Assembly (NCBI GenBank): GCA_030428885.1
Contig: JAUIEJ010000006.1
Location: forward strand, 124,001 to 188,000
Direction of reading: 5' to 3'
Source: Gemmatimonadota bacterium
GTDB lineage: Bacteria; Gemmatimonadota; Gemmatimonadetes; Longimicrobiales; Gaopeijiaceae
DNA length: 64,000 bases
Both the position numbers and the translations under genes were made by a program. The first letter of the stretch is position 1, and each line of letters opens with the position of its first letter. Under the pieces are notes generated by a model. That model was not told the origin of the DNA. It searched no databases and was given only the letters and a program-made list of their open reading frames with translations. Below are positions 48,498 through 64,000 of this stretch, in pieces.

Positions 48498-48737
48498 TCA
48501 GCCGCGACGGGACAGGACGTACGCGTCGATGTGGGCCAGGGTGGCGAAGTGGTCGAGCGTTACGTCCTGGGGTGGGATCTCGATCTCGTACGTCTCTTCC
48601 AGGTAGGCTACGAGCCTGAATACGGCCAGCGAGTCGAGGATCCCGCTGAGGAGGAGGTTGTCGTCGGGCGCAAGGTCCATCGAGCGATCATTCACGATCT
48701 CGGCTCGAATGAAGTCCCGGATCGTTTCGACGCTCAA
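48498..48737 (-). CDS. Stand-alone acyl/peptidyl carrier protein
   Basis: A 79-residue carrier protein with the phosphopantetheine Ser at S36 in LLSGILDSLAVFRL. Helix 1 (SVETIRDFIRAEIVNDRS) and the acidic helix region (VAYLEETYEIEIPPQDVTLD) fit the ACP fold. TTG start overlaps the stop of the adenylation gene by 4 bases (TTGA), so it is made with that enzyme and is its likely loading partner. Such an A/carrier pair prepares a starter or a modified amino acid for the assembly line. Confidence 0.85.
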   Translation of the reverse strand: MSVETIRDFIRAEIVNDRSMDLAPDDNLLLSGILDSLAVFRLVAYLEETYEIEIPPQDVTLDHFATLAHIDAYVLSRRG

Positions 48738-50278
48738 GACGGCGCTCCGCTGTGGTCGGCGGCGAGTTGCCGGTGATCGATCTTCCCGCTGGTGGTACGG
48801 GGGAGTTCCTTCGTCGGCACGATCGCGGCCGGCAGAGCGTAGCCGGGAAGCACGGCGCGGAGCCGCTGGAGCAGTTCCGTCGGGTCGACATCGCCGGAGA
48901 GCGTGACGGCGGCCCGGATCTGTCGGCTCCCCCGTCCGTCGGGCACCGCGAAGACCGCGGCCTCCACCACCCCTTCCTGACGTCCGAGTGCGAGCTCGAC
49001 ATCGTCGAGTTCGACCCGGTGGCCCCGGGTCTTGATCATGCGGTCTCGGCGACCGAGGAAGTCGAGGAGCCCGTCCTCCCGACGGACCACGACATCGCCG
49101 GTACGATAGTAGACGTGCGGGAAGGGCCCCCCACTGTCGCGTCTCAGGAAAGCCCTCGCGTTCAGGTCGGGACGATTCCAGTAGCCGCGCGTGAGGGTGG
49201 AACTCCGGATGCACAGTTCCCCCTCTTCACCGATGCCGCACTCGTCTCCGTTTTCGTCGACGATCAGGTCGACGGAATTCTTCGAGACGGTGCCGATGGG
49301 GACCGGTTCCGGAAAGTCGGGGGGCACGTCATAGCAGGTGCAGGAGGGCGCTTCCGCGGGACCATAGACGTTCGTGAACCGCACGTCGGGCAACGCGGCC
49401 ATGAGCGACCGCAAATGTTTTGGGGGGAACGGCTCTCCGCCGAAGAGGATCCACCGGAGGCTCGACAGGTCGGTCTGCTCCATGGCGCCGCGCTCGAGCA
49501 TCTCCATGAGTGTGTAGGGCACCGTGAACACCACGGAGATGCGCTCGTCCTGAACGTATCGAGTCCAACTGGCCGGGAACTTCGTCACCGGCTCCGGCAC
49601 GAGCACCACGGTGCCTCCGGCCTGCGCCGTGGAGAAGAAGTCGAAGATGCTGAGGTCGAAGTGGAGCGGCGCGTGACTCGCCACCCGGTCGGTCGACTGG
49701 AGCCCCACGTGCAACGCACCCCAGCGCGCGTAACTCACGCTGCCGTGATGCGTGTGCATCATCCCTTTCGGCTCACCCGTCGACCCCGACGTGTACATGA
49801 GGTACCCGAGGTCCTGATCGATCAGGCGGACACCGGGGTGCGAGGCGGGATAGCTCCGGACGTGGTCCCACGACGTCGACGATTCGTGGACCGGTCCGAA
49901 GACGTCCGGCCGAAGCCCGGAGTCGATGGCGTCGAGGCGCCCGACGAGCAGGTCCGACGTCACCAGGTGCCGAATCCCGCAGTCCTCGAGAATGAACGCG
50001 AGGCGCTCCGTGGGCAGGAACGGATCGAGCGGCACGAACACGCCCCCCGCCTTGAGGCTGCCGTAGATCGCCGTCCCCAGGTCCAGACTCTTGTGCATCC
50101 AGATCCCGACCCGATCACCGGGTGCGAGGCCGTGGTCGATCAGCGCATTCGCGAGCTGGTTCGACGCGGCGTCGAGGGCGCCGTAGGTGACTTCCGCTCC
50201 CTGGCAGGCCATGGCGGGCCGGTCGGGCGAGAGCCGGGCGTAATGCTCGACCGGAGAGTGAATCAGGAAGTCCAGCAT
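48734..50278 (-). CDS. Stand-alone amino-acid adenylation enzyme
   Basis: A 514-residue A-domain protein that should activate a carboxylic or amino acid with ATP and load a carrier. Cores: LMYTSGSTGEPKGMMHTHHG (A3), NVYGPAEAPSCTCYDV (A5), YYRTGDVV (A7), GRRDRMIKTRGHRVELDDVE (A8), and the catalytic Lys in RTTSGKIDHRQL (A10). The stretch HAPLHFDLSIFDFF and the YGPAE form resemble stand-alone prolyl-carrier ligases of pyrrole-2-carboxylate pathways. Hand-read pocket residues (Asp, Leu, Phe, Thr, Leu, Gly, Val, Ser, Cys) agree only partly with known proline codes, so the substrate stays open. Coupled to the carrier-protein gene. Confidence 0.88.
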   Translation of the reverse strand: MLDFLIHSPVEHYARLSPDRPAMACQGAEVTYGALDAASNQLANALIDHGLAPGDRVGIWMHKSLDLGTAIYGSLKAGGVFVPLDPFLPTERLAFILEDCGIRHLVTSDLLVGRLDAIDSGLRPDVFGPVHESSTSWDHVRSYPASHPGVRLIDQDLGYLMYTSGSTGEPKGMMHTHHGSVSYARWGALHVGLQSTDRVASHAPLHFDLSIFDFFSTAQAGGTVVLVPEPVTKFPASWTRYVQDERISVVFTVPYTLMEMLERGAMEQTDLSSLRWILFGGEPFPPKHLRSLMAALPDVRFTNVYGPAEAPSCTCYDVPPDFPEPVPIGTVSKNSVDLIVDENGDECGIGEEGELCIRSSTLTRGYWNRPDLNARAFLRRDSGGPFPHVYYRTGDVVVRREDGLLDFLGRRDRMIKTRGHRVELDDVELALGRQEGVVEAAVFAVPDGRGSRQIRAAVTLSGDVDPTELLQRLRAVLPGYALPAAIVPTKELPRTTSGKIDHRQLAADHSGAPS

Positions 50279-50303: not shown

Positions 50304-51551
50304 CTATCGGTTGAGCAGCGGCTGCAGGGGAGCGGGTACGAGGGGGATGTCGATGTCGAACGCCCGCTCGGTGAACCAGTAGAGGGCGATGGTGATCAGC
50401 ACCAGTGAGCCCAGAACGCGGATCCACCGGTACACCGGCTTGCGGCGAAGGGCGAACAGAATCGGGAAGGCCACGCAGATGATGGCGACCTGGCCGAGTT
50501 CGACGCCGATGTTGAAGCCCAGCAGCGACAGCACGAGGTACTCCCGACCCATGCCGATGTCACCCAGTACGGTGGCGAACCCGAATCCGTGGAAGAGGCC
50601 GAAGGCGAAGGCGATCATCCACTCTCGCACGTTCAGCCGGGTCGTCAGGTTCGCCAGCGCGGCCGCGGCGATCGAGGCGGCGATGACCGACTCCACGAGG
50701 CGGGACGGCATTCGGATCACGTCGAGCGCCGCGAGGCTCAGCGTCACGCTGTGCGCGATGGTGAAGAAGGTGACGATGGTCACGATCTTCATGAGGGCAC
50801 TGCGGAAGTCCGGCACGGGCTCCCATTCGCCCTTCCGGCGGAGCAGCACGGCCGGGAGCACCAGGGCCATCAGGAACAGGATGTGATCGAACCCGATCAG
50901 GATGTGCCAGACGCCGAGCCAGATGAACCCGATGAACCCCCGAAGCACACTCGACGATGTCAGGTCGAGCGTCTGGGTGCTGGCCCGCGGACTGAAGATG
51001 AGCGAGACGTTGCCTTCGTTGTTGAAGGTCGCCGTTTTCCAGTTGTGCTCGACGATGAGCATGTTCCGATGGTCGGAATCGACCTCGAACAATGGCGTGA
51101 ACTCGACCTCGATCTCGTCCGGCAGCCCGGTCCAACCCTCCGTCTCGTATACCAGGTTGATGTAGTCGTTCGCCCCGAGGTCCAACAGCTCGGACTCCCG
51201 GAATCGCAGCACGAGTTCGGTTCCCTCGGTTCGAAGCGAGACCTTCGGCTCCACGTATGCGCGAAGTCGTCCCTCCACGTTCCGCACGTCGGCCGTGGTG
51301 ACCGCCTCGGGGTCCCACCCGAATTCCAGGACCCGCTCGGCGTCCCGGACCGACAGCTCCACCCGGACGACCAGCGAATCGTCGTAGACCCGCAGATAGA
51401 TGTAGGTCTGGCCAAGTTCGTGGGGAACCACCGCGACGGCGGTCGCGCCGACGAGGCCGGGCTCGGCCGCGGCGGCCCCGGGGAGGGTCGCCGCCGAGAG
51501 GACGAGGGCCAGGAGGATGCTCGGGAAGCGGAGGAAAACCCGACGAATCAT
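50304..51551 (-). CDS. HupE/UreJ-family membrane protein
   Basis: A 415-residue protein with a signal peptide, a 200-residue periplasmic beta-rich domain, then about seven membrane helices that match the HupE/UreJ-2 family (GVWHILIGFDHILFLMALVL, FAFGLFHGFGFATVLGDIGM, NIGVELGQVAIICVAFPILF). The smaller HupE/UreJ proteins move Ni or Co; the role of these long forms is unknown. It lies between the two arms of the peptide cluster and is divergent from the first synthetase. It may be a cluster exporter or metal permease, or a bystander. Confidence 0.82.
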   Translation of the reverse strand: MIRRVFLRFPSILLALVLSAATLPGAAAAEPGLVGATAVAVVPHELGQTYIYLRVYDDSLVVRVELSVRDAERVLEFGWDPEAVTTADVRNVEGRLRAYVEPKVSLRTEGTELVLRFRESELLDLGANDYINLVYETEGWTGLPDEIEVEFTPLFEVDSDHRNMLIVEHNWKTATFNNEGNVSLIFSPRASTQTLDLTSSSVLRGFIGFIWLGVWHILIGFDHILFLMALVLPAVLLRRKGEWEPVPDFRSALMKIVTIVTFFTIAHSVTLSLAALDVIRMPSRLVESVIAASIAAAALANLTTRLNVREWMIAFAFGLFHGFGFATVLGDIGMGREYLVLSLLGFNIGVELGQVAIICVAFPILFALRRKPVYRWIRVLGSLVLITIALYWFTERAFDIDIPLVPAPLQPLLNR

Positions 51552-51725: not shown

Positions 51726-54700
51726 GTGGTCCGAACCCTTCCCGAGACCGGTACGCTCACCACCGCCGAGGGGCTCATCTGGCTCGGACAGCGACTCGAC
51801 CCCGAGTCGACGCTGTACAACATGGCCCTGGCGGTCGAAGTGGTCGGCGCGCTCGATGTCACGGCGCTCCGGACCGCGCTTCGTGCGGTCGTCGAGGCCG
51901 ACGAGGTCCTCCGGACGGTGTATCCCGATGTCGACGGCACGCCGGAGCGCCGAGTGCTCGAACACGTGCCGATCGATCTCGACGTACTGGACGCCCCCGA
52001 GGACGAGTTCACGGACCAGGCCGTCGAGCAGATTCTCTCGGATCGGACGGAACACCCGCTTCCCCTCGACCGTCCCCTGTTCGACATCTGCGTCGTACGA
52101 CGCGCCCCCGAACGATTCGTGCTCTACGTCAACCACCATCACATCGCCACCGACGCGTGGTCGATGGGAGTGTTCTTCGAGCGGTGGGCAGCGGCCTACG
52201 ACGGCGTCGTGTCCAAACACCCCTCCTACGCCGATCACGTCACGCGGGAACGCGAGGCCCGGTCGTCGTCGCAGTCTCAGAAGGCCCTGGAGTACTGGGG
52301 TCGCGGAACGTCGGACTCGGCCGCACCGCCGCTCTTCTACGGGGCGGCCGGCGTCGGAGACGGTCGGGTGGCGAAGGTGTCGGTTCCGTTCGGTCCGGAG
52401 CGGGGTGACCACCTCGCCCGGATCGCGTCACAGGCGCCGTTTCGAAGCCTGACGCTGGAGCAGTCCCGCTACCAGGTCTTCGCCACGCTCCTTCTGGCAT
52501 GGCACCATCGGGTGTCCGACCGGGCCGATGTCTCCATCGGGTCTCCCTGGCACAATCGCACGTCTGCCGAGGCGCGTGAGACCCTCGGCCTCTTCGTGGA
52601 GTTGTTCCCGCTCCGGACGCGGATCGACGCCGACGAAACGTTCGCCTCGCTCGGGGCCAAGGTGGCCCGGGCGATGATGACCAACATGCGCCACGTGTTC
52701 CCGGGCGCGAGTCTCGCGCCCGGTGCCCGCGGATTCCCGGTGGTGCTGAACTACATCACGGCCCAGATCTCGGAATTCGCCGGGCATCCCGCGAGCACGC
52801 GCTGGCTGCGGCCCGACTTCATCGATCCGGACCACCGGGCGCGACTGCACGTGCACGACTTCGCCGGGGCCGGGGAGCCGCTCCTCGATCTCGATCTCGC
52901 CGAAGCCGTCTTCGACGAACCGGCGCGCCGGTGGGTTGTACGCGATCTCCTGCGTCTCTTCGACGCTCTCGCGGCGGACCCGGACCGGCGCATCGCCGAT
53001 GTCCCGCTGGTGGAGGGCGGTGAGGCCGCCGAATTCGCGGCCTCGGGATCGAGGGTGGCGTCCCCCCCGCTCGTGCTCGCTTCGATCCGCGCCTGCGCCG
53101 ACACGGCGCCCGACCGGATCGCCCTGGTCGATGGCACCTCTCGCCTGACCTACGGCGAACTCGTGGAACAGGTCTCCGTTCTCGCGACGCACCTCCGGAC
53201 CGAGGGCGTCGCCGCGGGTGACGTCGTGGGCGTCGCCGTTCCCCGATCCGCCGACCTCGTGGTGGCGTTGCTCGGGGTGCTCGAGGCGGGGTGCGCCTTC
53301 CTGCCCCTGGACCCGACCCACCCGGACGAGCGCCTCCACTTCATGGCCGGTGAAGCGGGTGCCGCATGGGTCCTGTGCGACGAGGCCCACCGCGACCGGG
53401 TGGAACGGTGGGGGGCGCGGCCGGTCGTCTTCTCGGCCCGCGGAAGCGGCGACGAGGCGCCGGCAGCGTCGACCGCGACGGCTCGGGCCGACCTCGCCTA
53501 CGTGCTCTACACCTCCGGCTCGACGGGCCGTCCGAAAGGCGTCGAGGTCACCCACGAGGCGCTGGCGGAATACGTGCACTGGGCTCGACGCGTCTACGCA
53601 CCCGAGCCCGGACTGCGCTTCCCGCTGTTCACCTCGCCGGCCTTCGACCTGACCCTCACCTCGATCTTCGTACCGCTGGTCTCCGGGGGGACCATCGTCG
53701 TGTATCGGGAGGACCCGGGCTTCGAAGGGCTGCAGGTTCGACGCGTCTTCGAGGACGGCGACGTCGACGTGGTCAAACTTTCCCCTTCCCACCTCGCGTT
53801 GGTGCGGGACCTCGACCTGCGGGAGTCGCCCATCCGACGGCTCGTCCTGGGAGGGGAGGACCTGAAGACCCGTCTGGTGCGTTCGGTGCTCGAGTCGTTC
53901 GGCGGCGACGTGGAGATCTACAACGAGTACGGCCCCACCGAGGCCACCGTCGGGTGCATGATCCACCGATACGATCCGGACCACGACACCGGGGCATCGG
54001 TCCCCGTCGGGGTACCCACCGACAACGTCGGCATCCACGTCCTGGACCCCGGGGGACGGCCGGTCCCCCGCGGGGTGCGCGGTGAGATGTGCATCAGCGG
54101 GGCGCGCCTGGCGCGGGGCTACCGCAACCGTCCTGACGAGACCGACCGGGCGTTCACGCGCGTGCCCGGCGTCGATTCACCTCGGGTGTACCGCACGGGA
54201 GACGTGGGCCGTTGGATGCCGTCGGGGACGCTGGAGTTCCTGGGTCGGGCCGACGACCAGGTGAAGCTCCACGGCGTTCGGATCGAGTTGGGCGAGGTCG
54301 ACGCGGCGCTTTCGCGCCACCCCGACGTGCGCGAGCAGGTCGCCGTACTGGTCGAGGCCCGCGATCGGACCGAAGCCACCTGCGTTCGCTGTGGACTCCA
54401 GGGCGCGCATCCGGAGGCCAATCTCGACGTCGAGGGCGTATGCGCACCGTGCCGGCGATTCGAGCAGGATCGCGAGCGCGTGGCCGCCTACTTCGGATCG
54501 CCGGACGATCTCGCCGGCCGGCTCGCCGAGGCGCGGGAGCGCGCCACCGGTCCCCACGACGTCCTCATGCTCTACAGCGGTGGCAAGGACAGTACCTACG
54601 CCCTGTGCCGACTCATGGACATGGGTGCGCGGCCGCTGGTGTTCATGATGGACAACGGATACATCTCCGACGACGCCCACCGGAACATCCGCAAGGTGGT

Positions 54701-55877
54701 CGACACCCTCGGCCTCGAGCTCATCGTGGGCCGTACGCCGGCCATGCGCGAGATCTTCGCCGAGAGCCTGGCTCGATTCAGCGACGTGTGCGACGGGTGT
54801 TTCAAGGTGATCTACACCCTCGCCATGAATGTCGCCGTCGAACGAGGGATTCCGGCGATCGTCACCGGCCTGTCGCGAGGGCAGATCTTCCAGACGCGGT
54901 TGGCCGACCTCTATCGCCGCGGCATCTTCGAGCCCGAGGTCGTGGATCGCACGATCCTCGAAGCGCGGAAGATCTACCACAGGATGGACGATGCGGTGTC
55001 CCGCAACCTCGATGTCTCGGTCTTCGAGGACGACCGGGCCCTGGAGGAGGTCGCGTTCATCGACTTCTACCGATACATGGACGTGCCGTTGGACGAGTTG
55101 TACGCCTACCTCGCTGAACGCACGCCGTGGATCCGGCCCGGTGACACGGGCCGTTCGACGAACTGCCTCATCAACGAGGTCGGGATCTTCGTCCATCAGA
55201 TCGAACGTGGATACCACAACTACACGCTCCCCTACAGTTGGGACGTGATCCTCGGACAGAAGCAACGGGACGCGGCGCTGGAGGAGTTGGACGACGATCT
55301 CGACCCGGTGCGGGTCCGACGCATGCTGGACGAGGTCGGATACCGTGAGCGGCCGGCGCCCCCCCCCACCCCCCGTCTCGTCGCGTACTACACGGCGGAC
55401 CGCGACATTCGGAGTGCGGAGTGGCGCGCGTTCCTCGGCGAGTGGCTGCCGGCCGACATGGTGCCGTCGCGGTTCGTGCGGATCGAGTCCATGCCGCTCA
55501 CCCCGCACGGGAAGATCGATCGATCGGCCCTGGCGCCACCGGACGAGGAACGACCGCCCCTCGAGACCGCCTACGTCGCGCCGACCACGCCCGTCGAGGA
55601 AGTGCTGGCGGACGTCTGGAGCGACGTGCTGGGGCTGCGGACCATCGGTACCCGGGACGACTTCTTCGAGCTGGGCGGCGACTCGATGCAGTGCATCCAG
55701 ATCGTCGGGGCGGCCGGGGATCGGGGACTCCTCTTCGCGCCCCGGGACCTCTTCGCGAACCCCACGGTCGCGGAACTCGCCCGGGTCGTTCAGGTGGGTG
55801 CCGAACGGGCAGCCCCCGCCGCGGCGACCGCCAGCGCCTCCGAGCTGTCGGAGCTCGAACTCGAGCTGGGCTCGTGA
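51726..55877 (+). CDS. NRPS C-A-T module whose A domain contains a PP-loop ATP pyrophosphatase
   Basis: A 1383-residue synthetase. Residues 10-430: condensation domain with HHIATD (138-143). Residues 450-880: A domain with YTSGSTG (595-601), NEYGPTE (733-739), YRTGDVG and GRADDQVKLHGVRIELGEV. Between A8 and A9 (about 880-1215) sits a PP-loop domain: CVRC (886-889) and CAPC (906-909) zinc-finger-like pairs, SGGKDST (951-957), CDGC (1022-1025) and DTGRSTNCLINEVG. A9/A10 follow (LVAYYTAD from 1218; Lys1263 in PHGKIDRS), then a T domain with Ser1320 in LGGDSMQ. Pocket residues read by hand against GrsA are D-L-T-K-V-G-E-V-G, closest to Asn/Asp codes. PP-loop enzymes activate a carbonyl for amidation or thiolation, so side-chain or carrier-bound modification of Asx is a reasonable inference. 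Confidence 0.92.
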   Translation: MVRTLPETGTLTTAEGLIWLGQRLDPESTLYNMALAVEVVGALDVTALRTALRAVVEADEVLRTVYPDVDGTPERRVLEHVPIDLDVLDAPEDEFTDQAVEQILSDRTEHPLPLDRPLFDICVVRRAPERFVLYVNHHHIATDAWSMGVFFERWAAAYDGVVSKHPSYADHVTREREARSSSQSQKALEYWGRGTSDSAAPPLFYGAAGVGDGRVAKVSVPFGPERGDHLARIASQAPFRSLTLEQSRYQVFATLLLAWHHRVSDRADVSIGSPWHNRTSAEARETLGLFVELFPLRTRIDADETFASLGAKVARAMMTNMRHVFPGASLAPGARGFPVVLNYITAQISEFAGHPASTRWLRPDFIDPDHRARLHVHDFAGAGEPLLDLDLAEAVFDEPARRWVVRDLLRLFDALAADPDRRIADVPLVEGGEAAEFAASGSRVASPPLVLASIRACADTAPDRIALVDGTSRLTYGELVEQVSVLATHLRTEGVAAGDVVGVAVPRSADLVVALLGVLEAGCAFLPLDPTHPDERLHFMAGEAGAAWVLCDEAHRDRVERWGARPVVFSARGSGDEAPAASTATARADLAYVLYTSGSTGRPKGVEVTHEALAEYVHWARRVYAPEPGLRFPLFTSPAFDLTLTSIFVPLVSGGTIVVYREDPGFEGLQVRRVFEDGDVDVVKLSPSHLALVRDLDLRESPIRRLVLGGEDLKTRLVRSVLESFGGDVEIYNEYGPTEATVGCMIHRYDPDHDTGASVPVGVPTDNVGIHVLDPGGRPVPRGVRGEMCISGARLARGYRNRPDETDRAFTRVPGVDSPRVYRTGDVGRWMPSGTLEFLGRADDQVKLHGVRIELGEVDAALSRHPDVREQVAVLVEARDRTEATCVRCGLQGAHPEANLDVEGVCAPCRRFEQDRERVAAYFGSPDDLAGRLAEARERATGPHDVLMLYSGGKDSTYALCRLMDMGARPLVFMMDNGYISDDAHRNIRKVVDTLGLELIVGRTPAMREIFAESLARFSDVCDGCFKVIYTLAMNVAVERGIPAIVTGLSRGQIFQTRLADLYRRGIFEPEVVDRTILEARKIYHRMDDAVSRNLDVSVFEDDRALEEVAFIDFYRYMDVPLDELYAYLAERTPWIRPGDTGRSTNCLINEVGIFVHQIERGYHNYTLPYSWDVILGQKQRDAALEELDDDLDPVRVRRMLDEVGYRERPAPPPTPRLVAYYTADRDIRSAEWRAFLGEWLPADMVPSRFVRIESMPLTPHGKIDRSALAPPDEERPPLETAYVAPTTPVEEVLADVWSDVLGLRTIGTRDDFFELGGDSMQCIQIVGAAGDRGLLFAPRDLFANPTVAELARVVQVGAERAAPAAATASASELSELELELGS

Positions 55878-58639
55878 GCCGCGTCCAGCGGGCGTTCCCG
55901 TTGACGCCCCTGCAGGAGGGCATGCTCTGGCACACGGTGCGGGAGCCCACGTCGGGGCTGTACCACGGTCAGGTCGACGCCCTGCTGCGAGGGGCCCTCG
56001 ACGAGACGCGGTTCCGAGCGGCATGGCGCACCGCCATGGGGCGCCACGAGGCCTTCCGGACGGTCTTCGCGTGGGAGCGTCGGGAGCGGCCGCTCCAGGT
56101 GGTGCTCCACGACGCGCCGCTGCCCATGCGGTTCCTCGACTGGCGCGGCCTCGACGACGCGGCGCGCGCCGCCCGCTGGAATGCGCTCCTCGAGAAGGAT
56201 CGGGCCGAGCCCTTCGATCTCATGAGGGCGCCCCTGATGCGATGGGTCGTCGTCCGTTGGAAGGACGACGAACACCGACTCCTCTGGAGCGTGCACCACG
56301 CACTGGCCGACGGGTGGTCGGCCCTGTCCGTGCTCGGCGAGATCCTCGTCGACCACGACCGTCCCGTCGGGGCTCCTGCCGTCGCTCGACCCGAAGCTCC
56401 GAACTTCGCCCAGTTCGTCGGCTGGCTCGAGACACGGGACACGGAGGCCGCGCGGCGACACTGGACGCGCGAGCTCGCGGGCGTCGGGACCACCATCGCC
56501 CTGCCCTACGCGCCCACCGGCCCCGGCGGGTCCAGGCGGGTGAGGACGGAGCTGACGCTGACCGGCGCCGACACCGCCGCGGCCGTCGCGGCAGCCTCCC
56601 GGCTTCGCGTCACGCTCAACACGCTGCTCGTCGCGGCCTGGTCGAGGGTTCTCGCACGCCGGACGGGGCGCGACGACGTGGTCTTCGGTGTCACCAGCTC
56701 GGAGCGGCCCACGGTCATTCCCGCCATCGAGTCCGCCGTGGGACTGTACCTGTCGACCGTGCCCGTGCGCGTACGCTCGCGGCCCGACGAGCGGGTCGGC
56801 GCATGGCTTGCGCGCATGCAGACCAATCTCGCCGAGGGCAGGGAGCATGGTGCCCCCGGACTGGCGGAAATCCAGCGCTGGAGCGGCGTCCGGGACGGAC
56901 CGCTGATCAACAGCCTGGTGGTGTTCGAGAGCTTTCCCGGAGCCGTGGAGCACGCGGTGGACGGCGGGAGCCTCGAGGTGGTCGACCTCTCCATGGCCGT
57001 TCCCTCCGACCTGCCGCTGGCCCTGCTGGCGTATCCGGGTGAGCGTCTGCGGCTGGTGTTGTGCCGGGACCCCGACGCCCTGTCGGCCGACACGGCAGGG
57101 GGCCTCCTCCGCCAGGTCGCGGCCGAGTTCGCGGCCCTGCAGGGCGATCCCGGTCGCACCATGGCGGACCTGGACGCGGCGTCTGGATCGGCTGCGTCCG
57201 GCGCCGGGGGCGGCTCCCCGGTTCGGGGTCCCGAACTCGACGAAGCGCCCGTCGACGTCCTCGCCCTGGTGGAGGCACAGGCCCGCGACCGGCCCGACGC
57301 CATCGCCGTGGTCGGACCCGACGGTTCCCTCACCTACGGGCAACTCGACGCCTGGGCGGACGCGGTCTCCCGGCGCCTGACGGCGGTCGGGGGCGGCCCC
57401 GAGAGGTTCGTCGCGGTGCTTGCGGGTCGCGTTCCCGAGGCCATCGTGGGGATGCTCGCGGCGCTGAAGGCACGGTGTGCGTACATCTCCCTCGATCCCG
57501 ACCTGCCGACGGCGCGCCTCGCGGCGATGGCGAGCGCAGCGGATCTGGCGGTCACGACCGCCGAACACGAGGGGCGGCTCCCTCCCCGGGTGCCCCGGGT
57601 CGTGGTCGGTCGGGATCCCGAGTCCGCCCAGGCGGCCGAGCGTATGCCCCCCGCGGAGCGCGAGCCGTCCGCCGACGCGGCGTACGCGATCTTCACGTCG
57701 GGGTCCACCGGGACGCCCAAGGCGGTGGTGGTGGAGCGCCGGCAGCTCGCGTGGTCCACCGCGGCGCGGCTCCAGTACTTCTCCGAGCACCCGGGGGTCT
57801 TCCTGCTGTTGTCTCCGATCTCGGTGGACAGCGCCACAGCGGGCATCTACTGGGCCCTGTGCGCCGGGGGGACCCTCGTGCTCCCGCCGCCGAGAGCGGA
57901 GCAGGACGTCGAGGAGCTGGGACGCATGATCGCCCGCGAGGGCGTGACGCATACGCTCCTCGTGCCCTCGCTGTACCACGCGCTCCTCGACCACGTCGAC
58001 GTCGATCGGCTCGCGACCCTGCGCGTGGTGGTCGTCGCGGGCGAGGCGTGTCGGGACGAGGTGGCTCGTGCGCATCGGCGAACCATCGGGCACGTGGCCC
58101 TGTTCAACGAATACGGGCCCAGTGAGGCGACCGTCTGGGCCACCGCCGACGATCTGTCGGATCGCTCGACGGGCACCGTGACCATCGGCCGCCCCGTACC
58201 GGGCGTGCGGATCCACCTTCTCGACGACGACGGGCGCGAGGTCGACGAGGGGCGGGCCGGCGAGATCGGCATCTCGGGGCCCGGCGTCGCACGCGGGTAC
58301 CTCGGCCGACCCGAACTCACCGCGGAACGATTCGTCGAAGGGGGTCCGGGGCACGGACCGAGGATCTACCGGACAGGCGACCGGGGTCGGTGGCGCGCCG
58401 ACGGTCGGCTGCAGTTCCTGGGCCGTGTCGACGATCAGGTGAAGATTCGAGGCCACCGGGTCGAGGTGGGCGAGATCGAGTCCGTCCTGTCCGACCACCC
58501 GTCGGTACGGGAGGCGGTGGTGGCGCTCGTCGACTCCGACGGGGGGCCCCCCGACATCCAGCGGCTGATTTCCCTGCTGCTCGACCTCGAACCCGACGAC
58601 CGGCTCGAGCTGATTGCGCAGGCGGAGGCGATGGAATGA
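55874..58639 (+). CDS. NRPS C-A protein ending inside the A domain (no A9/A10, no T)
   Basis: A 921-residue synthetase. Condensation domain: FPLTPLQEGMLWHT at the start, HHALADGWS (141-149). A domain: FTSGSTG (607-613), NEYGPSEATVW (from 745), YRTGDRG, GRVDDQVKIRGHRVEVGEIE (A8). The chain stops about 40 residues later, after a helical LEPDDRLELIAQAEAME tail. The A9/A10 subdomain with the catalytic Lys and the carrier are missing here but appear at the start of the gene at 59421, with a methyltransferase gene between. Pocket residues read D-S-A-L-V-A-E-V-W; I cannot assign a substrate. GTG start overlaps the previous stop (GTGA); its TGA overlaps the next ATG (ATGA). Confidence 0.9.
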   Translation: MSRVQRAFPLTPLQEGMLWHTVREPTSGLYHGQVDALLRGALDETRFRAAWRTAMGRHEAFRTVFAWERRERPLQVVLHDAPLPMRFLDWRGLDDAARAARWNALLEKDRAEPFDLMRAPLMRWVVVRWKDDEHRLLWSVHHALADGWSALSVLGEILVDHDRPVGAPAVARPEAPNFAQFVGWLETRDTEAARRHWTRELAGVGTTIALPYAPTGPGGSRRVRTELTLTGADTAAAVAAASRLRVTLNTLLVAAWSRVLARRTGRDDVVFGVTSSERPTVIPAIESAVGLYLSTVPVRVRSRPDERVGAWLARMQTNLAEGREHGAPGLAEIQRWSGVRDGPLINSLVVFESFPGAVEHAVDGGSLEVVDLSMAVPSDLPLALLAYPGERLRLVLCRDPDALSADTAGGLLRQVAAEFAALQGDPGRTMADLDAASGSAASGAGGGSPVRGPELDEAPVDVLALVEAQARDRPDAIAVVGPDGSLTYGQLDAWADAVSRRLTAVGGGPERFVAVLAGRVPEAIVGMLAALKARCAYISLDPDLPTARLAAMASAADLAVTTAEHEGRLPPRVPRVVVGRDPESAQAAERMPPAEREPSADAAYAIFTSGSTGTPKAVVVERRQLAWSTAARLQYFSEHPGVFLLLSPISVDSATAGIYWALCAGGTLVLPPPRAEQDVEELGRMIAREGVTHTLLVPSLYHALLDHVDVDRLATLRVVVVAGEACRDEVARAHRRTIGHVALFNEYGPSEATVWATADDLSDRSTGTVTIGRPVPGVRIHLLDDDGREVDEGRAGEIGISGPGVARGYLGRPELTAERFVEGGPGHGPRIYRTGDRGRWRADGRLQFLGRVDDQVKIRGHRVEVGEIESVLSDHPSVREAVVALVDSDGGPPDIQRLISLLLDLEPDDRLELIAQAEAME

Positions 58640-59424
58640 CGAGGAAGCTCAAGAGAACGTCCGCGTTCGAACTCCGGCTCGAGGTTCGGGACGAGGGGTT
58701 CGTGCGTCCTCCCGTCGATGCCCAGCGGCACGCGCTCCTCAATCAGTTCATGAAGGAGGCGGCCCTCGACCTGGAAGCACTCGACGCGCTCGCCGACCGG
58801 TTCGTCGCGGGGGGCGAGCGGCACCGCCCCGTCGACATGCGAGACCGGGCGCTTTCGGACGACCAGATCATGGAGGACTGGCAGTTGCCGCTGATGCGGG
58901 CCATGGCCGACATCGTCGGGGCACACGGCGGCGACGTGCTCGAGATCGGCTTCGGCCGCGGGGTGTCGGCGACGTTCCTCCAGGAACACGATCTGCGGTC
59001 CCATACCATCATCGAGTGCAACGACTCCGTGGTGGATCGCTTCGACGAATGGCGAACGGCGTATCCCGATCGTGACATCCGCATGGTCCACGGCCTGTGG
59101 CAGGACACCATCGGATCGCTCGGACAGTTCGACGGCATCTTCTTCCACACCTACGCCCTCGACGAGGACGAGGCCATCGATCTCCTCGCCCGCAGCGTGA
59201 CCTTCGCCGATCACTTCTTCCCCACGGCCAGTGCCCACCTGCGACCGGGCGGCGTCTTCACCTACCTGACCAACGAAGTGGACTCGCTGAGCCGTGCGCA
59301 CCAACGGCTGCTCCTCCAGAGGTTCCGTTCCTTTCGTGTGCAGATCGTCCCCCTCCAGCTCCCCGACGACGTCCGGGACGCGTGGTGGGCCGATTCCATG
59401 GCCGTCATCGAGGTAGTCAAGTGA
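58636..59424 (+). CDS. GAMT-like SAM methyltransferase lying between halves of a split A domain
   Basis: A 262-residue class I methyltransferase related to guanidinoacetate N-methyltransferase: IMEDWQLPLMRAM, VLEIGFGRG (101-109, SAM loop), HTIIECND (123-130), GLWQD (153-157), FDGIFFHTY (165-173) and LRPGGVFTYLTNE. Both acids that hold the guanidino group in mammalian GAMT (Glu46 in RWETP, Asp135 in YDTY) are replaced, by Gln83 and His171, so a guanidino substrate is unlikely. Methylation of the carrier-bound aminoacyl group is inferred from its position, which is where cis-embedded methyltransferases interrupt A domains. It overlaps both neighbours by 4 bases (ATGA and GTGA). Confidence 0.88.
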   Translation: MTRKLKRTSAFELRLEVRDEGFVRPPVDAQRHALLNQFMKEAALDLEALDALADRFVAGGERHRPVDMRDRALSDDQIMEDWQLPLMRAMADIVGAHGGDVLEIGFGRGVSATFLQEHDLRSHTIIECNDSVVDRFDEWRTAYPDRDIRMVHGLWQDTIGSLGQFDGIFFHTYALDEDEAIDLLARSVTFADHFFPTASAHLRPGGVFTYLTNEVDSLSRAHQRLLLQRFRSFRVQIVPLQLPDDVRDAWWADSMAVIEVVK

Positions 59425-61388
59425 CGGGGACCGACGAGCGGGCCCGTCTCACTCGGCGCCTGGAGGCGATGTCGCCCCTGGCCCTGGCATCGCTGGCGAG
59501 GGCGCTCGGCGAAACCGGTGGCGATCGCTCCCGCCTGACCGCGTTCATCGAGGCAGAGGGGCCCGACGTCGACGGGGCCGAACTCCGGGCCCACCTCGAG
59601 GAGCGCCTCCCGGACTACATGGTGCCCGCACGGTACGTCCGGATCGAGCGGTTTCCCCGCACGCCTGCAGGGAAGCTCGATCGGCGGGCCGTGGCGGCGA
59701 TGTCGGGCGACGAACTCTCCGCGGCGGCTGCCCCCGGGGCCTTCGTGCCGCCGCGCGACGAGACCGAGGAGCTTCTGGCGCGGATCTGGCGCGACGTGCT
59801 CGGAACGGACGAGATCGGCGTGCACGACGACTTCTTCGAACTGGGAGGCGACTCGCTCCTGAGCATCCGGGTGATCTCCCGGGCCGGCCGGGAGGGCCTC
59901 GAGATCGCTCCGGCAGACTTCTTCGACCATCCGACCATCGCTCAACTGGCGGTCCTGGCCGGAACGACGCGCGCCTCGGCCGAACAGGGCGTCGTCACCG
60001 GCTCCGCTCCCCTCACGCCCATCCAGCACTGGTTCTTCGAGAGGGTCACGCAGGCACGACACCACTGGAACCAGGCGGTGTTGCTCACCCCGCCGCCATC
60101 GATGGACGCGGCGGCGTTCGAACGCGCAGTCGAAGCGCTCGTGCGGCATCACGATGCGCTTCGCGCCCGCCTCGTGGTCCAGGACGGCCAACGGCGTCAG
60201 GTCTTCGATCCCCCCGAGGAGGTCGGGTGCGCCGAGGTGATCGATTTCTCGGGCGTGGCGCCCACCGACCGTCTCGATCGCCTGGCCGCGGAGGCGACGC
60301 GCATCCACGAGTCGTTCTCCCTGGACGGCGGACCCCTCTTCCGGGCGGTCCTCTTCCATGGAGGCGACGCGTTCAAGCGTGTCCTCCTCGTGGCGCACCA
60401 CCTCGTCGTCGACGCCCACTCCTGGACGATCCTGCTCGACGACCTGTCGGCACTCGTGGCCGGCGGGCCGGGCGACGAAACCCACCCGCTCCCCCGCAAG
60501 ACCTCGTCGATGCTCGCGTGGGCCGAGGGCCTCGCCGCAGCCGCCGAAGAGCTCGACGTGGGCACCCTCCGGACGGTGTGGGCCCTCCCGGAGCGGGGCA
60601 CCTCGACCCACGACCCCGACCCCGCACATATCGGCCCCGCCACCCGGAACCGGCGGGTCGAGCTGACCGAAAGCGCGTCGTCGGACTTCCTCCAGGCCGT
60701 CTCGGCTCGCGACGACGTGAGCCCGCAGCAGGCGATCCTGGGGGCGGTCGTCACGGCGTGGCGCCGGTGGTCGGGGACGCCTCTTTCGCAGGTCGACGTG
60801 GAGGGCCATGGACGGGACGTGCTGTCGGGGACGCTCGACGTCTCGCGCACGGTGGGCTGGTTCACGACCGTCTTTCCACTGGCGCTCGAGATTCGCACCG
60901 GGTCGGTGCACGAGGCCGCCTCGGCGGTGAGGGGCGCCTTCGCCTCTCTCCCGCTCCGCGGCGGGAGCCACGGCCTCCTGCGCTATCTCCATCCCGATCC
61001 CGCCGTGCGGGAGGAATTCGCGGCCGGTCGGCACTCCGACCTCCTCTTCAACTACCTCGGCGCCTACGACGGCGAACTCGCGCCCGACTCCCCCTTCGAG
61101 AGCGCGGCCGAGTCGACGGGCCCTGCGCGCCCGGTCGATACACGACCCGCCTACGGTGTCGAGATCAACACTTCGGTGGAGCGCGGCCGTCTGACCCTGC
61201 GGGTGACCGTCGACGCGGCCCGGTATGCTCCCGAGGCGGTGGCCGATCTCGTCGAACACATGGAGCAGGCGCTCGAGGAATTCACTCGGGAGGCCCCTGC
61301 CGAGACGACCCGCCTCGACCTGGCGGGGCTCGACGACGCCGGACTCGAACACCTGTCCGACCTGCTTTCCGAGATCGACGGGGAGTAG
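59421..61388 (+). CDS. NRPS A(C-terminal part)-T-E protein
   Basis: A 655-residue synthetase beginning with a helical stretch, then the A-domain C-terminal subdomain: LEERLPDYMVPARYVRIERF (A9) and TPAGKLDRRA (A10, Lys85). It has no N-terminal A subdomain; that is in the gene at 55874. A T domain follows with Ser145 in LGGDSLLS, then an epimerisation domain (IQHWFFERVTQARHHWNQAV, HHLVVDAHSW from 326, DVSRTVGWFTTVFP, LLFNYLGAYDG, RPAYGVEINTSVERG). So the residue activated by the split A domain should be delivered in D form. GTG start overlaps the methyltransferase stop by 4 bases. Confidence 0.9.
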   Translation: MTGTDERARLTRRLEAMSPLALASLARALGETGGDRSRLTAFIEAEGPDVDGAELRAHLEERLPDYMVPARYVRIERFPRTPAGKLDRRAVAAMSGDELSAAAAPGAFVPPRDETEELLARIWRDVLGTDEIGVHDDFFELGGDSLLSIRVISRAGREGLEIAPADFFDHPTIAQLAVLAGTTRASAEQGVVTGSAPLTPIQHWFFERVTQARHHWNQAVLLTPPPSMDAAAFERAVEALVRHHDALRARLVVQDGQRRQVFDPPEEVGCAEVIDFSGVAPTDRLDRLAAEATRIHESFSLDGGPLFRAVLFHGGDAFKRVLLVAHHLVVDAHSWTILLDDLSALVAGGPGDETHPLPRKTSSMLAWAEGLAAAAEELDVGTLRTVWALPERGTSTHDPDPAHIGPATRNRRVELTESASSDFLQAVSARDDVSPQQAILGAVVTAWRRWSGTPLSQVDVEGHGRDVLSGTLDVSRTVGWFTTVFPLALEIRTGSVHEAASAVRGAFASLPLRGGSHGLLRYLHPDPAVREEFAAGRHSDLLFNYLGAYDGELAPDSPFESAAESTGPARPVDTRPAYGVEINTSVERGRLTLRVTVDAARYAPEAVADLVEHMEQALEEFTREAPAETTRLDLAGLDDAGLEHLSDLLSEIDGE

Positions 61389-61390
61389 CC

Positions 61391-63829
61391 ATGGCTCCGA
61401 AGAACGTCGACGACATCTTCCCGCTGACCCCCATGCAGCGGCTGATGCTCATGCACAGCGTCGCCCACCCGGAGTCGCCCACCCTGACCAACCAGGTCCG
61501 CTACGACATCGACGGTCCACTCGACGTGCCCCGGTTCCGGGCCGCCTGGGAGGCGTTGATGCGGCGGCATGCCGCGCTCCGGACCGCAGTGCTCTGGGAG
61601 GGACTGGACCGACCGTTGAACGTGGTCCGCCGCGAGGTCGTCCTTCCTTTCGAGGAGGTCGACGCTTCGGATGCGTCGCCGGAGGAGCAGGACCGGGTAG
61701 TTGCCGCCATGGCCGAGCGGCATGCCTCGGGTTTCGAGCTTCCCCGGGCGCCGCTCATGCGGTGCGCTCTCGTGCGGCGCGCGCCGACCCGCCACGCCTT
61801 CGTGTGGAGCGTCCACCACATCGTCGTGGACCGCTGGAGCTACGAGATCCTCATCCGCGATCTGGAGGCGTTCTACGAGGCCGGCAATTCCGGTGTGGAG
61901 CCGGAGCTGCCGGCTCCGGGCCGGTTCCGCGACTACGTGGCGTGGCTCGGACGCCGGCCCGCCGGCGCGTCGGAGCGCTTCTGGCGCGACCACCTGTCCG
62001 GGGTCCGGGCACCCACCCTCTGGGAGCCGGGCCCGGGCGCGGATCCAGGGGCAGGCCGGGCCCGCACCGAGCGGGCTCTCGACCCGGCCGACGCCGCACG
62101 TCTCGAGGCTCGAGCGTCGCAGTGGCGCACCACGCCGGCCACCGTCGTCCTGGCCTCCATCGGCCTGATGCTGGCTGAGCGCAACGAATCGCCCGACGTC
62201 GTGACGGGGCTCACCGTGTCCGGTCGCCCGGCCGATGTGGACGGCGTCGAGGAGGCGGTGGGGTCGTTCATCAACAACGTGCCCCTTCGATTCAGTCTGC
62301 GGAACGACCGGCCACTCGGCGATTGGATGCGCGACATCCAGACCGTACAGGTGCAGCGGCAGCCGCACGAGCACGAGTCGTTGGACGTCATCGAGGAGTG
62401 GTCCGATCTGCCGGCGGGGAAGGCCCTCTCCGATGGCCTGGTCGTGCTCAACCTGCTCTCATCGGAATACCGCGCCTGGTCGGACATCCGGGTCCGCCCC
62501 GTGGCGGCCACCCTCGATGCCCGCTACCGGTGGGTGCTCCAAGTTGCGAAGGCGGGCGACGGTCTCGAACTCACCGTGGTCCACGACGCCGGTTCCGACG
62601 GTGCGCCCGCGCTCCTCGACGCCCTGGTGGAGACACTTCGCCGACTCGTGGCCGCCCCGGCCGACGCCACACTGGGCGCGGTCCTTCGGCTTCCGGAGCG
62701 GGTAGGCGGGGCCGCCGAGCCCGTCGACCGGGCCGACGGATCCCCCCGCGTCTGGGACGAGGATTCATCGTTCGTCGGGCAGGAAGTGCTCGCCATCTGG
62801 CGGGAGGTCCTGGGCCAGCCCGAGCTGGGGCTCGACGACGACTTCTTCGAGAGGGGAGGCACGTCGCTGCAGGCCGCCCGGATCTTCCGGCGGGTCGAGG
62901 GGATCACCGGGCGTGTACTCTCGCTGTCGGTCCTGCTCGAGGCCTCCACGCCGCGGCGGCTTCTCGCGGCGCTCGAGGTGCCCTCGGACCCGGCGGGCCC
63001 CCTGGTGCCCATCGTCCCCGGCGGGAGCGGACGCCCCATGGTCGCGGTGCCGGGCATCGGAGGGAACGTGGTCGGGCTCTATCCGCTCGCGAAGGCGTTG
63101 CGGGCCACGCGGCCTCTCTACGGTCTGCAGTCCCGCGGGCTGGACGGGTGCGCCCCACCCCTGACCACGATCGAGGAGATCGCGGCGGACTTCGCCGACG
63201 CGGTCCTCGAGGTGGGGGACGAGGGGATCCACCTCATGGGTGCCTGCTGGGGTGCGGCGGTGGCGTTCGAGCTGGCCCACCAACTGGAGGAACGGGGGGT
63301 CGCAGTGGCCTCGCTCTCGCTGGTCGATCCCGCGACCCTCCTGAGGAAGGACCCCGGGAGTCACGGCACGCCGGGTCAGGAGGAGGGAGCCGGGGAGCCG
63401 GTGGCGCGGGCCTTCGTCGCGGAACGACTGCGTTCGTACTGGGCGGATTTCCGAGACCGAGACTGGAGGAGTCGAGTTCGGTTCGTGCTCGGGAAGGCAA
63501 GCCTGGCGATGCGGCTGGTCCGCTCGGGTGGACGGACGGCGGAGTCCGTTTCGGAGATGAACGCCATCCGGGTCAAGGCGGCCAACACCGTGGCGGTGGA
63601 GGGCTACCGGCCGACCCGGGTTCGGGTCCCCGCCCGCGTGTACTTCTCCGAAGGTACGTGGATGGGGGCCGACGACCCGAGGCTCGAGTGGGTCGACCTG
63701 GTCGAGCCGACTCCCGAGGTCGTCACGACTCCGGGCATCGACTCCGGTGACGCCATCCAGACGTACGCGAAGGACTTCGCCGGCGAGTTGGAGCGCTGGT
63801 TGGACGCCGTCGATCCCCCGGCGCCCTGA
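61391..63829 (+). CDS. NRPS C-T-TE terminal module without an A domain; Cys-type thioesterase
   Basis: An 812-residue termination protein. Condensation domain: IFPLTPMQRLMLMHS, HHIVVDRWS (142-150). T domain: Ser492 in ERGGTSLQAA. Thioesterase: PMVAVPGIGGNVVGLYPLAK, then MGACWGAAVAFELAHQLEE, where the nucleophile elbow is G-A-C-W-G with Cys619 in place of Ser. The acid is probably in SLVDPATLL. The usual C-terminal GxH catalytic His is not seen: the corresponding TTPGIDSGDAIQTYAKDF has none. No A domain is present, so the T domain must be loaded in trans, perhaps by the stand-alone A enzyme at 48734. The C domain follows an E domain and should be a DCL type. ATG 61391 lies 2 bp after the previous stop. 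Confidence 0.9.
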   Translation: MAPKNVDDIFPLTPMQRLMLMHSVAHPESPTLTNQVRYDIDGPLDVPRFRAAWEALMRRHAALRTAVLWEGLDRPLNVVRREVVLPFEEVDASDASPEEQDRVVAAMAERHASGFELPRAPLMRCALVRRAPTRHAFVWSVHHIVVDRWSYEILIRDLEAFYEAGNSGVEPELPAPGRFRDYVAWLGRRPAGASERFWRDHLSGVRAPTLWEPGPGADPGAGRARTERALDPADAARLEARASQWRTTPATVVLASIGLMLAERNESPDVVTGLTVSGRPADVDGVEEAVGSFINNVPLRFSLRNDRPLGDWMRDIQTVQVQRQPHEHESLDVIEEWSDLPAGKALSDGLVVLNLLSSEYRAWSDIRVRPVAATLDARYRWVLQVAKAGDGLELTVVHDAGSDGAPALLDALVETLRRLVAAPADATLGAVLRLPERVGGAAEPVDRADGSPRVWDEDSSFVGQEVLAIWREVLGQPELGLDDDFFERGGTSLQAARIFRRVEGITGRVLSLSVLLEASTPRRLLAALEVPSDPAGPLVPIVPGGSGRPMVAVPGIGGNVVGLYPLAKALRATRPLYGLQSRGLDGCAPPLTTIEEIAADFADAVLEVGDEGIHLMGACWGAAVAFELAHQLEERGVAVASLSLVDPATLLRKDPGSHGTPGQEEGAGEPVARAFVAERLRSYWADFRDRDWRSRVRFVLGKASLAMRLVRSGGRTAESVSEMNAIRVKAANTVAVEGYRPTRVRVPARVYFSEGTWMGADDPRLEWVDLVEPTPEVVTTPGIDSGDAIQTYAKDFAGELERWLDAVDPPAP

Positions 63830-63848: not shown

Positions 63849-64000
63849 TCATCCTCGGCCGGACCCGCCGACCGCCATGAAAGCAGCGATCAGGTTCCGC
63901 TGCATTTCCGCGGTGCCCGCACTCACGGTGGCACCCAGAGCGTCCCGCACGTCGCGCTCGACCTCCCCCTCCGTCATGTACCCGCGCGCCCCATGGACCC
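63849..64000 (-). CDS. Acyl-CoA-dehydrogenase-family protein, C-terminal end (runs off right edge)
   Basis: About 50 codons of the C-terminus: VHGARGYMTEGEVERDVRDA then GTAEMQRNLIAAF, the standard ending of acyl-CoA dehydrogenases. At the place where medium-chain enzymes have the catalytic base (YEGT) this one has SAGT, as in the isovaleryl-CoA branch, where the base lies elsewhere. That branch includes the oxidases acting on carrier-bound proline. Beside a stand-alone A/carrier pair, this suggests dehydrogenation of a carrier-bound amino acid. It converges with the terminal synthetase gene, 19 bp apart. Confidence 0.8.
   Translation of the reverse strand, partial: VHGARGYMTEGEVERDVRDALGATVSAGTAEMQRNLIAAFMAVGGSGRG

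What the first reader, a model, noticed from the sequence alone, without database searches (positions are those of the whole stretch)
54363..55373. PP-loop ATP pyrophosphatase embedded in an NRPS adenylation domain
The first synthetase has an insertion of about 335 residues between A8 and A9, the position where methyltransferases interrupt some A domains. Here the insert is an N-type PP-loop domain (SGGKDST) with CVRC, CAPC and CDGC pairs, like sugar amidotransferases of the WbpG type and thiolating AANH enzymes. I do not recall a characterised example. The A-domain pocket reads DLTKVGEVG by hand, near Asn/Asp. A domain that ATP-activates a carbonyl next to an Asx-activating site suggests in-module amidation, thioamidation or amidine formation. 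The insertion is in frame, so it is not an assembly artefact.
Basis: partly seen in the sequence, partly recalled or inferred. Interest (0 to 1): 0.93.

Follow-up and report, generated by a model that had tools for sequence, protein, structure and literature searches.

The report
Asparagine-modifying domain inside peptide synthetase
A peptide-building enzyme carries, inside its asparagine-selecting part, a second ATP-using domain that almost certainly belongs to the known AMDH class (cystobactamid, albicidin), which turns asparagine into a nitrile or isoasparagine; what is new is a widespread unstudied pathway around it and a seven-cysteine signature suggesting that this class binds zinc and an iron-sulfur cluster.

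Summary
ORF 51726-55877(+) is C-A-T with a ~335-residue PP-loop domain inserted between A8 and A9; the A code is DLTKVGEVG (Asn-like). It is not an artefact: 19 further genomes or plasmid records from several bacterial groups carry the same domain in an Asn-coded A domain.

The claim that no characterised example exists is wrong. CysH (cystobactamid) and AlbIV (albicidin) carry a ~342-residue/38-kDa SGGKD 'AMDH' domain inserted in an Asn-activating A domain. On carrier-bound Asn it makes beta-cyanoalanine or isoasparagine (PMC7966384; PMC8949500; PMC12283262). This insert is best read as a new AMDH member; I predict dehydration to beta-cyanoalanine, because no CysJ-like hydroxylase and no ammonia-supplying HisH/HisF was found. 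CysH and AlbIV sequences could not be fetched, so membership rests on shared features.

New here: (1) seven cysteines are invariant in 21/21 domains: the zinc tetracysteine of N-acetyl sugar amidotransferases plus CxGC...C, whose CxGC aligns with the [4Fe-4S] CxxC of LarE. This could explain the brown CysH that its authors could not. (2) A conserved pathway: proline-derived (pyrrole) starter - Asn* - His. (3) In four lineages the His-type A domain is split around a GAMT-like methyltransferase gene.

The parts
51726..55877 (+). NRPS gene 1, module 1: C-A(AMDH-like)-T, 1383 aa
   Evidence: same architecture in L002, L003, L004, L013, L015, L057 and others
51777..52694 (+). Condensation domain, takes the starter acyl group (inferred)
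   Evidence: Pfam PF00668 residues 18-323
53094..54341 (+). Adenylation domain core A1-A8, specificity code DLTKVGEVG (Asn-like)
   Evidence: TIGR01733 up to residue 872 and PF00501; code; Asn/beta-cyanoalanine code DLTKIGEVGK in PMC12283262
54363..55373 (+). PP-loop (AANH) insert, AMDH-like, between A8 and A9
54381..54452 (+). Tetracysteine CVRC...CAPC, equivalent to the zinc site of N-acetyl sugar amidotransferase
   Evidence: invariant in 21/21; CXXCXn[GN]XCXXC zinc motif of NASAT, PMC10607449
54576..54593 (+). PP-loop SGGKDS
54789..54800 (+). CDGC (CxGC), aligned with the [4Fe-4S]-binding CxxC of LarE
   Evidence: invariant in 21/21; profile alignment to 8cnz
55164..55166 (+). Third Cys of the putative Fe-S triad, in GRSTNCLIN
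   Evidence: invariant in 21/21
55374..55580 (+). A-domain C-terminal part with A9 and A10 (HGKID)
55602..55787 (+). Thiolation (carrier) domain of module 1
   Evidence: PF00550 residues 1293-1354
55874..58639 (+). NRPS gene 2: C and A-domain core of module 2, ends after A8; code DSALVAEVW (His-type)
   Evidence: DSALIAEVWK = His in PMC12283262
58636..59424 (+). Guanidinoacetate-methyltransferase-like gene lying between the two halves of the module 2 A domain (ATGA overlap)
   Evidence: PDB 3orh, E 3.4e-22; junctions; same order in L002, L003 and, as far as its contig reaches, L016
59421..61388 (+). NRPS gene 4: A-domain C-terminal part (A9/A10), T, and a condensation-family domain that reads as epimerisation (GTGA overlap)
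   Evidence: Pfam; junctions
61391..63829 (+). NRPS gene 5: C-T-thioesterase, no A domain
   Evidence: Pfam on the longer frame; gene call
48734..50278 (-). Stand-alone amino-acid adenylating enzyme, proline-type code by eye (DLFFLGVSC)
   Evidence: TIGR01733 363 bits; relatives in L002, L003, L004; pocket from the sequence printed
48498..48737 (-). Stand-alone carrier protein, 79 aa
   Evidence: relatives match PF00550 and AmcB/DltC-type models
63849..64000 (-). 3' end of the prolyl-carrier dehydrogenase-type gene (continues past the window: L005 1849-3528, minus strand)
   Evidence: Acyl-CoA DH Pfam for L005; its L002 relative hits PigA 411 bits
50304..51551 (-). HupE/UreJ-family membrane protein, conserved beside the NRPS
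   Evidence: PF13795 1.8e-48; found in L002, L003, L004, L013, L015, L057

Best explanation
The insert is an AMDH-type domain (aminomutase/amide dehydratase), the class known from CysH and AlbIV, here built in line into the first extension module (C-A-T) of an assembly line instead of a stand-alone A-T module. The A domain selects L-Asn and loads it on the T domain (inferred from the code). The embedded PP-loop domain then uses ATP to activate the side-chain amide oxygen as an AMP or phosphate ester, and expulsion of that group gives the nitrile, i.e. carrier-bound beta-cyano-L-alanine. With a beta-hydroxylase, which I did not find here, isoasparagine would be the expected alternative. The domain probably binds zinc through its tetracysteine and an Fe-S cluster through CxGC...C. 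The module would receive a proline-derived, probably pyrrole-2-carbonyl, starter and pass pyrrolyl-cyanoalanine to a His module. Shown by computation: domain identity, site, codes, conservation, partner genes. Shown in the literature for CysH only: Asn loading and dehydration/isomerisation. Inferred: the same reaction here, the metal sites, the product.
For: Published AMDH features met here: insertion in an A domain; ~335 aa against 342 aa/38 kDa; SGGKD; Asn-type code, with the exact nine positions DLTKIGEVG in L002, L004, L013, L016, L028, L030-L032, L084 and DLTKVGEVG in the window, against DLTKIGEVGK for AlbIV's Asn/beta-cyanoalanine. Gross et al. report that all BLAST homologues of AMDH lie inside Asn-specific A domains (PMC7966384), which is what the survey here found with one exception. 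The A domain looks active (A3, A5, A7, A10 intact). In L028 and L030-L032 the domain is in A-T proteins with no C domain and a downstream TubC_N-thioesterase, so the Asn side chain is the only amide available on the carrier. asnB lies beside it in L028 and L059. No HisH/HisF partner belongs to these clusters, as expected for a reaction that needs no nitrogen donor. The nitrile synthetase ArtA, which only dehydrates an amide, is among the structural matches (Z 11.7; PMC13060819). Fe-S: 7 Cys invariant in 21/21; second-best PDB profile hit is [4Fe-4S] LarE, CxxC on CxGC; purified CysH is dark brown; C2-to-C3 spacing 122-123 residues here against 127 in the Fe-S thioamide synthetase CtaC.
Against: CysH and AlbIV sequences could not be fetched, so no direct identity was measured. 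The nearest curated model is a sugar amidotransferase that makes amidines. ArtA is one of many PP-loop enzymes at a similar Z. The CxGC...C triad is also that of sulfur-inserting enzymes, and CtaC makes thioamides on carrier-bound substrates. Gross et al. looked for CxxCxxxC only and judged a radical mechanism unlikely. No hydroxylase was noticed, but not every neighbouring gene was scanned in every locus. The CWHC...C triad also occurs in sugar amidotransferases beside HisH, so the triad alone does not fix the reaction.
Confidence: 0.66

Rival explanations
1. Aminomutase outcome: the domain isomerises carrier-bound Asn to isoasparagine, as the major cystobactamid pathway does, rather than dehydrating it.
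For: Deleting the AMDH domain of CysH abolishes isoasparagine and cyanoalanine linkers alike (PMC7966384).
Against: In that system isomerisation is favoured after CysJ hydroxylation, and no CysJ-like hydroxylase was noticed in the scanned neighbours.
Confidence: 0.13
2. Thioamide synthetase in cis: the Fe-S-bearing PP-loop domain replaces the side-chain amide oxygen of Asn by sulfur (thioasparagine), or a backbone amide, like CtaC of closthioamide biosynthesis.
For: CxGC...C triad at the place of the Fe-S cysteines of LarE; CtaC is a PP-loop enzyme with CxxC and a third Cys 127 residues on, acts only on carrier-bound substrate, and its homologues sit near NRPSs (PMC6772006).
Against: AMDH domains in the same architecture with the same A code dehydrate or isomerise Asn; no sulfur donor gene seen; CtaC-type enzymes described are separate proteins.
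Confidence: 0.1
3. Amidine formation on the Asn side chain with ammonia, as sugar amidotransferases of the WbpG/WbuX type do on N-acetyl groups; a GAMT-like enzyme could then methylate the amidine.
For: TIGR03573 105 bits over the whole insert, shared zinc tetracysteine, best structural match 8wex; GAMT-like gene in four clusters.
Against: TIGR03573 cut-off 203.2 not reached; no dedicated HisH/HisF in the clusters, while most of the 12 stand-alone loci examined have HisH; embedded domains form their own branch; the methyltransferase gene lies in the His module, not the Asn module.
Confidence: 0.08
4. The domain has lost its chemistry and is a structural remnant.
For: None found.
Against: PP-loop and seven Cys invariant in 21/21; insert more conserved than the A domain around it.
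Confidence: 0.02

Closest known systems
AMDH domain of CysH, cystobactamid biosynthesis (Gross et al. 2021, PMC7966384)
   Same: ~38 kDa SGGKD domain inserted in an Asn-activating A domain followed by T; ATP-binding motif; homologues reported only in Asn-specific A domains
   Different: CysH is a stand-alone A-AMDH-T module that loads another synthetase in trans with CysB; here mostly in-line C-A-T; no CysJ/CysQ/CysB-like partners noticed; sequences not compared directly
AlbIV alpha-ANH-like domain, albicidin biosynthesis (Cociancich 2015, as described in PMC8949500 and PMC12283262)
   Same: 342-aa SGGKD insertion, Asn preferred by the A domain, code DLTKIGEVGK, proposed amide dehydration to beta-cyanoalanine
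   Different: stand-alone A-T module acting in trans; different pathway and starter
N-acetyl sugar amidotransferases (TIGR03573; WbpG, WbuX; structure 8wex)
   Same: fold, PP-loop, zinc tetracysteine, full-length alignment
   Different: below family cut-off; no HisH/HisF; embedded in an NRPS; many members including 8wex lack the CxxC...C triad
CtaC thioamide synthetase (closthioamide)
   Same: PP-loop enzyme of thiotemplated pathways with CxxC...C Fe-S motif
   Different: separate protein; acts on backbone amides; makes thioamides
[4Fe-4S] LarE, TtuA, NcsA sulfur-inserting PP-loop enzymes
   Same: core fold; CxxC of LarE aligns with CxGC
   Different: substrates are nucleotides or tRNA; only the core is shared
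A domains interrupted by methyltransferase or oxidase (TioS, KtzH, IndC)
   Same: insertion between A8 and A9; tailoring of T-bound amino acid
   Different: inserted domain is an ATP pyrophosphatase-type enzyme
Nitrile synthetase ArtA (PDB 9lei)
   Same: PP-loop fold, amide to nitrile with ATP
   Different: asparagine-synthetase-like, not inserted in an NRPS, weak sequence match (E 0.6)

Membership tests
AMDH domain (CysH/AlbIV) | inserted within an NRPS A domain (A8-A9 region) followed by T | tested here: met
AMDH domain (CysH/AlbIV) | about 342 aa / 38 kDa with SGGKD ATP motif | tested here: met
   ~335 aa, SGGKDS; published size and motif
AMDH domain (CysH/AlbIV) | host A domain of Asn specificity | tested here: met
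   DLTK[VI]GEV[GA] against DLTKIGEVGK; specificity not assayed
AMDH domain (CysH/AlbIV) | sequence homology to CysH/AlbIV AMDH and its seven core motifs | not testable with these tools
   neither sequence nor supplement could be retrieved
AMDH domain (CysH/AlbIV) | dehydrates or isomerises T-bound Asn | not testable with these tools
   needs protein assay
N-acetyl sugar amidotransferase (TIGR03573) | scores above the curated cut-off 203.2 bits | tested here: not met
   105 bits
N-acetyl sugar amidotransferase (TIGR03573) | PP-loop and CXXCXn[GN]XCXXC tetracysteine | tested here: met
N-acetyl sugar amidotransferase (TIGR03573) | HisH/HisF-type ammonia partner in the gene cluster | tested here: not met
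   signature scan of 19 loci; the only HisH (L057, L058) belongs to a neighbouring sugar locus with its own amidotransferase
CtaC-type Fe-S thioamide synthetase | CxxC plus distant Cys after the PP-loop | tested here: met
   CxGC and C, 122-123 apart; CtaC C154, C157, C284
CtaC-type Fe-S thioamide synthetase | Fe-S cluster bound and sulfur inserted | not testable with these tools
   needs spectroscopy and assay
CtaC-type Fe-S thioamide synthetase | sequence similarity to CtaC | not testable with these tools
   CtaC sequence not in the reachable collections
Interrupted A domain | auxiliary domain between A8 and A9 with intact A core motifs | tested here: met

The most novel reading that the evidence does not exclude
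This clade has moved away from AMDH chemistry: its embedded domain uses a [4Fe-4S] cluster to put sulfur (or nitrogen) into the Asn side chain in cis, making a pyrrolyl-thioasparaginyl-histidine metal-binding peptide, the first thioamide or amidine synthetase built into an A domain.
Probability: 0.12. Interest if true: 0.85.

Novelty: new member of a known kind. Interest (0 to 1): 0.45.

Why it matters
AMDH chemistry has been described as proceeding by an unknown mechanism with an unassigned metal. A seven-cysteine signature shared by 21 domains, homology to a zinc-bearing sugar amidotransferase and alignment to a [4Fe-4S] PP-loop enzyme give a concrete, testable answer. The work also exposes a conserved, apparently undescribed pathway (proline-derived starter, modified Asn, His) in Alphaproteobacteria, Actinomycetota and other groups, including sequenced strains such as Roseovarius pelagicus HL-MP18, and shows AMDH working in line.

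Tried and rejected
Amidine by a WbuX-type mechanism was my first reading from the best HMM; it lost ground when no HisH/HisF was found and when the AMDH papers turned up. Thioamide was my second reading, from the Cys triad and CtaC; kept as a rival, since some HisH-linked sugar amidotransferases also have CWHC...C, so the triad does not decide. AlphaFold of the whole interrupted A domain (848 aa, 4 sequences) was poor, pLDDT 59, and was not used to argue geometry. Coordinates of models were not available in the box, so Cys-Cys distances were not measured. A scan of viral contigs found no relative. TtuA-type family TIGR00269 is absent from the own genome. No CysH, AlbIV or CtaC sequence was reachable. 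The tree has long branches (L059, NBC_00470), so single origin of the insertion is favoured but not shown. Literature searching is limited to open-licence papers, so other reports of AMDH proteins in this clade may exist.
Full report
Observation. ORF 51726-55877 on the + strand encodes 1383 residues without interruption. Pfam and NCBIfam place C (18-323), A (to 872) and T (1293-1354), with about 335 extra residues between A8 and A9. The boundaries are clear when set beside the uninterrupted module 2 A domains of L013 and L015: the insert replaces the short loop between '...VREQVAVLVE' and 'RLVAYY'. A3, A5, A7, A8, A9 and A10 are all intact, so the A domain should work. The pocket is DLTKVGEVG.

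What the insert is. Excised, it aligns over its whole length with the N-acetyl sugar amidotransferase model TIGR03573 (105 bits, cut-off 203.2). Its predicted structure (pLDDT 74.8) matches PDB 8wex at Z 18.9, far above LarE, TtuA, NcsA and the nitrile synthetase ArtA at Z 11-12. 8wex is described with a PP-loop and a zinc tetracysteine CXXCXn[GN]XCXXC (PMC10607449); the insert has both.

Relatives. A scan of genomes gave three relatives, all inside long NRPS ORFs in the same frame. Searches of the own family and phylum, of plasmids and of three other groups gave more. In all, 20 embedded copies including the window were read; every A-domain code that could be read is DLTK[VI]GEV[GA] (a few positions missed by the script are visible in the printed sequences). 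One Streptomyces record (L059) has the domain at the N-terminus of a condensation-domain protein next to asnB and a separate A-T protein, and another (L060) has a distant stand-alone copy. In a maximum-likelihood tree the 21 domains, with the long-branched L060 copy, separate from all stand-alone sugar amidotransferases on a branch with 99/97 support. Insert and A core diverge together (r = 0.87), the insert being the more conserved. The domain is rare: 6 of 394 other genomes of the own phylum, 2 of 289, 2 of 274 and 3 of 346 in the other groups sampled, centres included (full-length matches only).

Cysteines. In 21/21 domains exactly seven Cys are invariant: the four of the tetracysteine, CxGC after the PP-loop, and one in the STNCLIN motif. 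A profile of the insert against PDB sequences ranks 8wex first (2.3e-7) and the [4Fe-4S] LarE 8cnz second (2.1e-6), with LarE's CxxC under CxGC. LarE of Thermotoga binds [4Fe-4S] with Cys92, Cys95 and Cys172 (PMC9283937). CtaC, which thioamidates carrier-bound peptides, has C154, C157 and C284 (PMC6772006). The third Cys was not covered by the LarE alignment, so its role rests on invariance and spacing. Most stand-alone sugar amidotransferases looked at lack the triad, but a CWHC...C subgroup has it and two of its members sit beside HisH.

Known precedent. Cystobactamid CysH and albicidin AlbIV carry a 342-residue, 38-kDa SGGKD domain in an Asn-activating A domain. Gross et al. named it AMDH: CysH loaded with Asn shifts from +114 to +96 (loss of water, beta-cyanoalanine), CysH lacking the domain does not, and deletion abolishes isoasparagine and nitrile linkers in vivo. 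They report that all homologues are in Asn-specific A domains, that CysH is dark brown, and that they found no CxxCxxxC motif. A later survey gives DLTKIGEVGK as a code shared by Asn and beta-cyanoalanine and repeats the AlbIV insertion. The window protein meets every descriptor that could be tested. I therefore file it as an AMDH member at about 0.9, with the caveat that the sequences themselves could not be compared.

Which reaction here. No nitrogen donor of the HisH/HisF kind belongs to these clusters and no hydroxylase of the CysJ kind appeared among the neighbours scanned. In cystobactamid biosynthesis dehydration dominates when CysJ is absent. Dehydration to beta-cyanoalanine is therefore the best-supported outcome. 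The A(AMDH)-T operons with phosphopantetheinyl transferase, acyl-CoA dehydrogenase-like enzyme and TubC_N-thioesterase (L028, L030-L032) have no condensation domain, so the Asn side chain is the only amide present; this argues against a backbone amide as the target.

The pathway. Conserved beside the larger NRPSs are a stand-alone adenylating enzyme, a carrier protein, and a dehydrogenase closest to PigA/RedW prolyl-carrier dehydrogenases (411 and 373 bits, below their cut-offs of 500 and 650), which points to a pyrrole-2-carboxyl starter; and a HupE/UreJ-family membrane protein. Module 2 has the code DSAL[IVM]AEVW (one DSVLIAEVW), the published His code DSALIAEVWK. In the window, L002, L003 and L016 the module 2 gene stops after A8 and a guanidinoacetate-methyltransferase-like gene follows (PDB 3orh, E 3.4e-22); in the window, L002 and L003, whose contigs reach further, the next gene starts with A9-A10-T. 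Overlapping ATGA/GTGA or closely spaced junctions in several lineages argue against frameshift errors. In L013 and L015 this A domain is whole and no methyltransferase is seen.

Verdict. Observation confirmed; interpretation partly supported; architecture and class already described, so a new member of a known kind. The parts that go beyond the literature I could read are the in-line placement, the seven-cysteine zinc plus Fe-S proposal for an enzyme class whose metal was unassigned, the shared proline-starter/Asn*/His pathway, and the split A domain.

Noticed in passing
window 55874-61388: The His-type module 2 A domain is split over two genes at the same A8-A9 loop, with a GAMT-like methyltransferase gene between them and ATGA/GTGA overlaps; the same order occurs in L002 and L003, and L016 shows the first part before its contig ends.
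   Followed up: partly
L028, L030-L032: Compact operon: phosphopantetheinyl transferase, acyl-CoA dehydrogenase-like protein, A(AMDH)-T, TubC_N-thioesterase; it may make a single modified amino acid. L028 has an asparagine synthetase gene in the middle.
   Followed up: partly
L059 14080-18900 (Streptomyces sp. NBC_01216 plasmid): AMDH-like domain at the N-terminus of a condensation-domain protein, outside the A domain, between asnB, an A-T protein and an Asp/Glu-type racemase.
   Followed up: partly
L060 9704-10852 (Streptomyces sp. NBC_00470 plasmid): Distant stand-alone PP-loop protein with CWPC and STNCMMN but no tetracysteine, near a ketosynthase and an acyl carrier protein.
   Followed up: no
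L018 14979-16217, L052, L061 6992-8197: Some N-acetyl sugar amidotransferases have a CWHC...C triad (in L018 and L061 next to HisH), so part of that family may also bind an Fe-S cluster.
   Followed up: partly
window 50304-51551 and L005 3782-5878: HupE/UreJ-family protein in the larger clusters and a TonB-dependent receptor just beyond the window; with a His residue and pyrrole in the predicted product this could hint at a metal-binding peptide.
   Followed up: no
L057 and L058 (Roseovarius pelagicus and Pseudohalocynthiibacter aestuariivivens plasmids): Nearly the same cluster on plasmids of two genera, next to a sugar locus with its own amidotransferase, HisF and HisH; suggests recent transfer.
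   Followed up: no
window 39565-40521: PLP-dependent enzyme of the PALP (cysteine synthase-like) family upstream of the cluster; relation to the pathway unknown.
   Followed up: no
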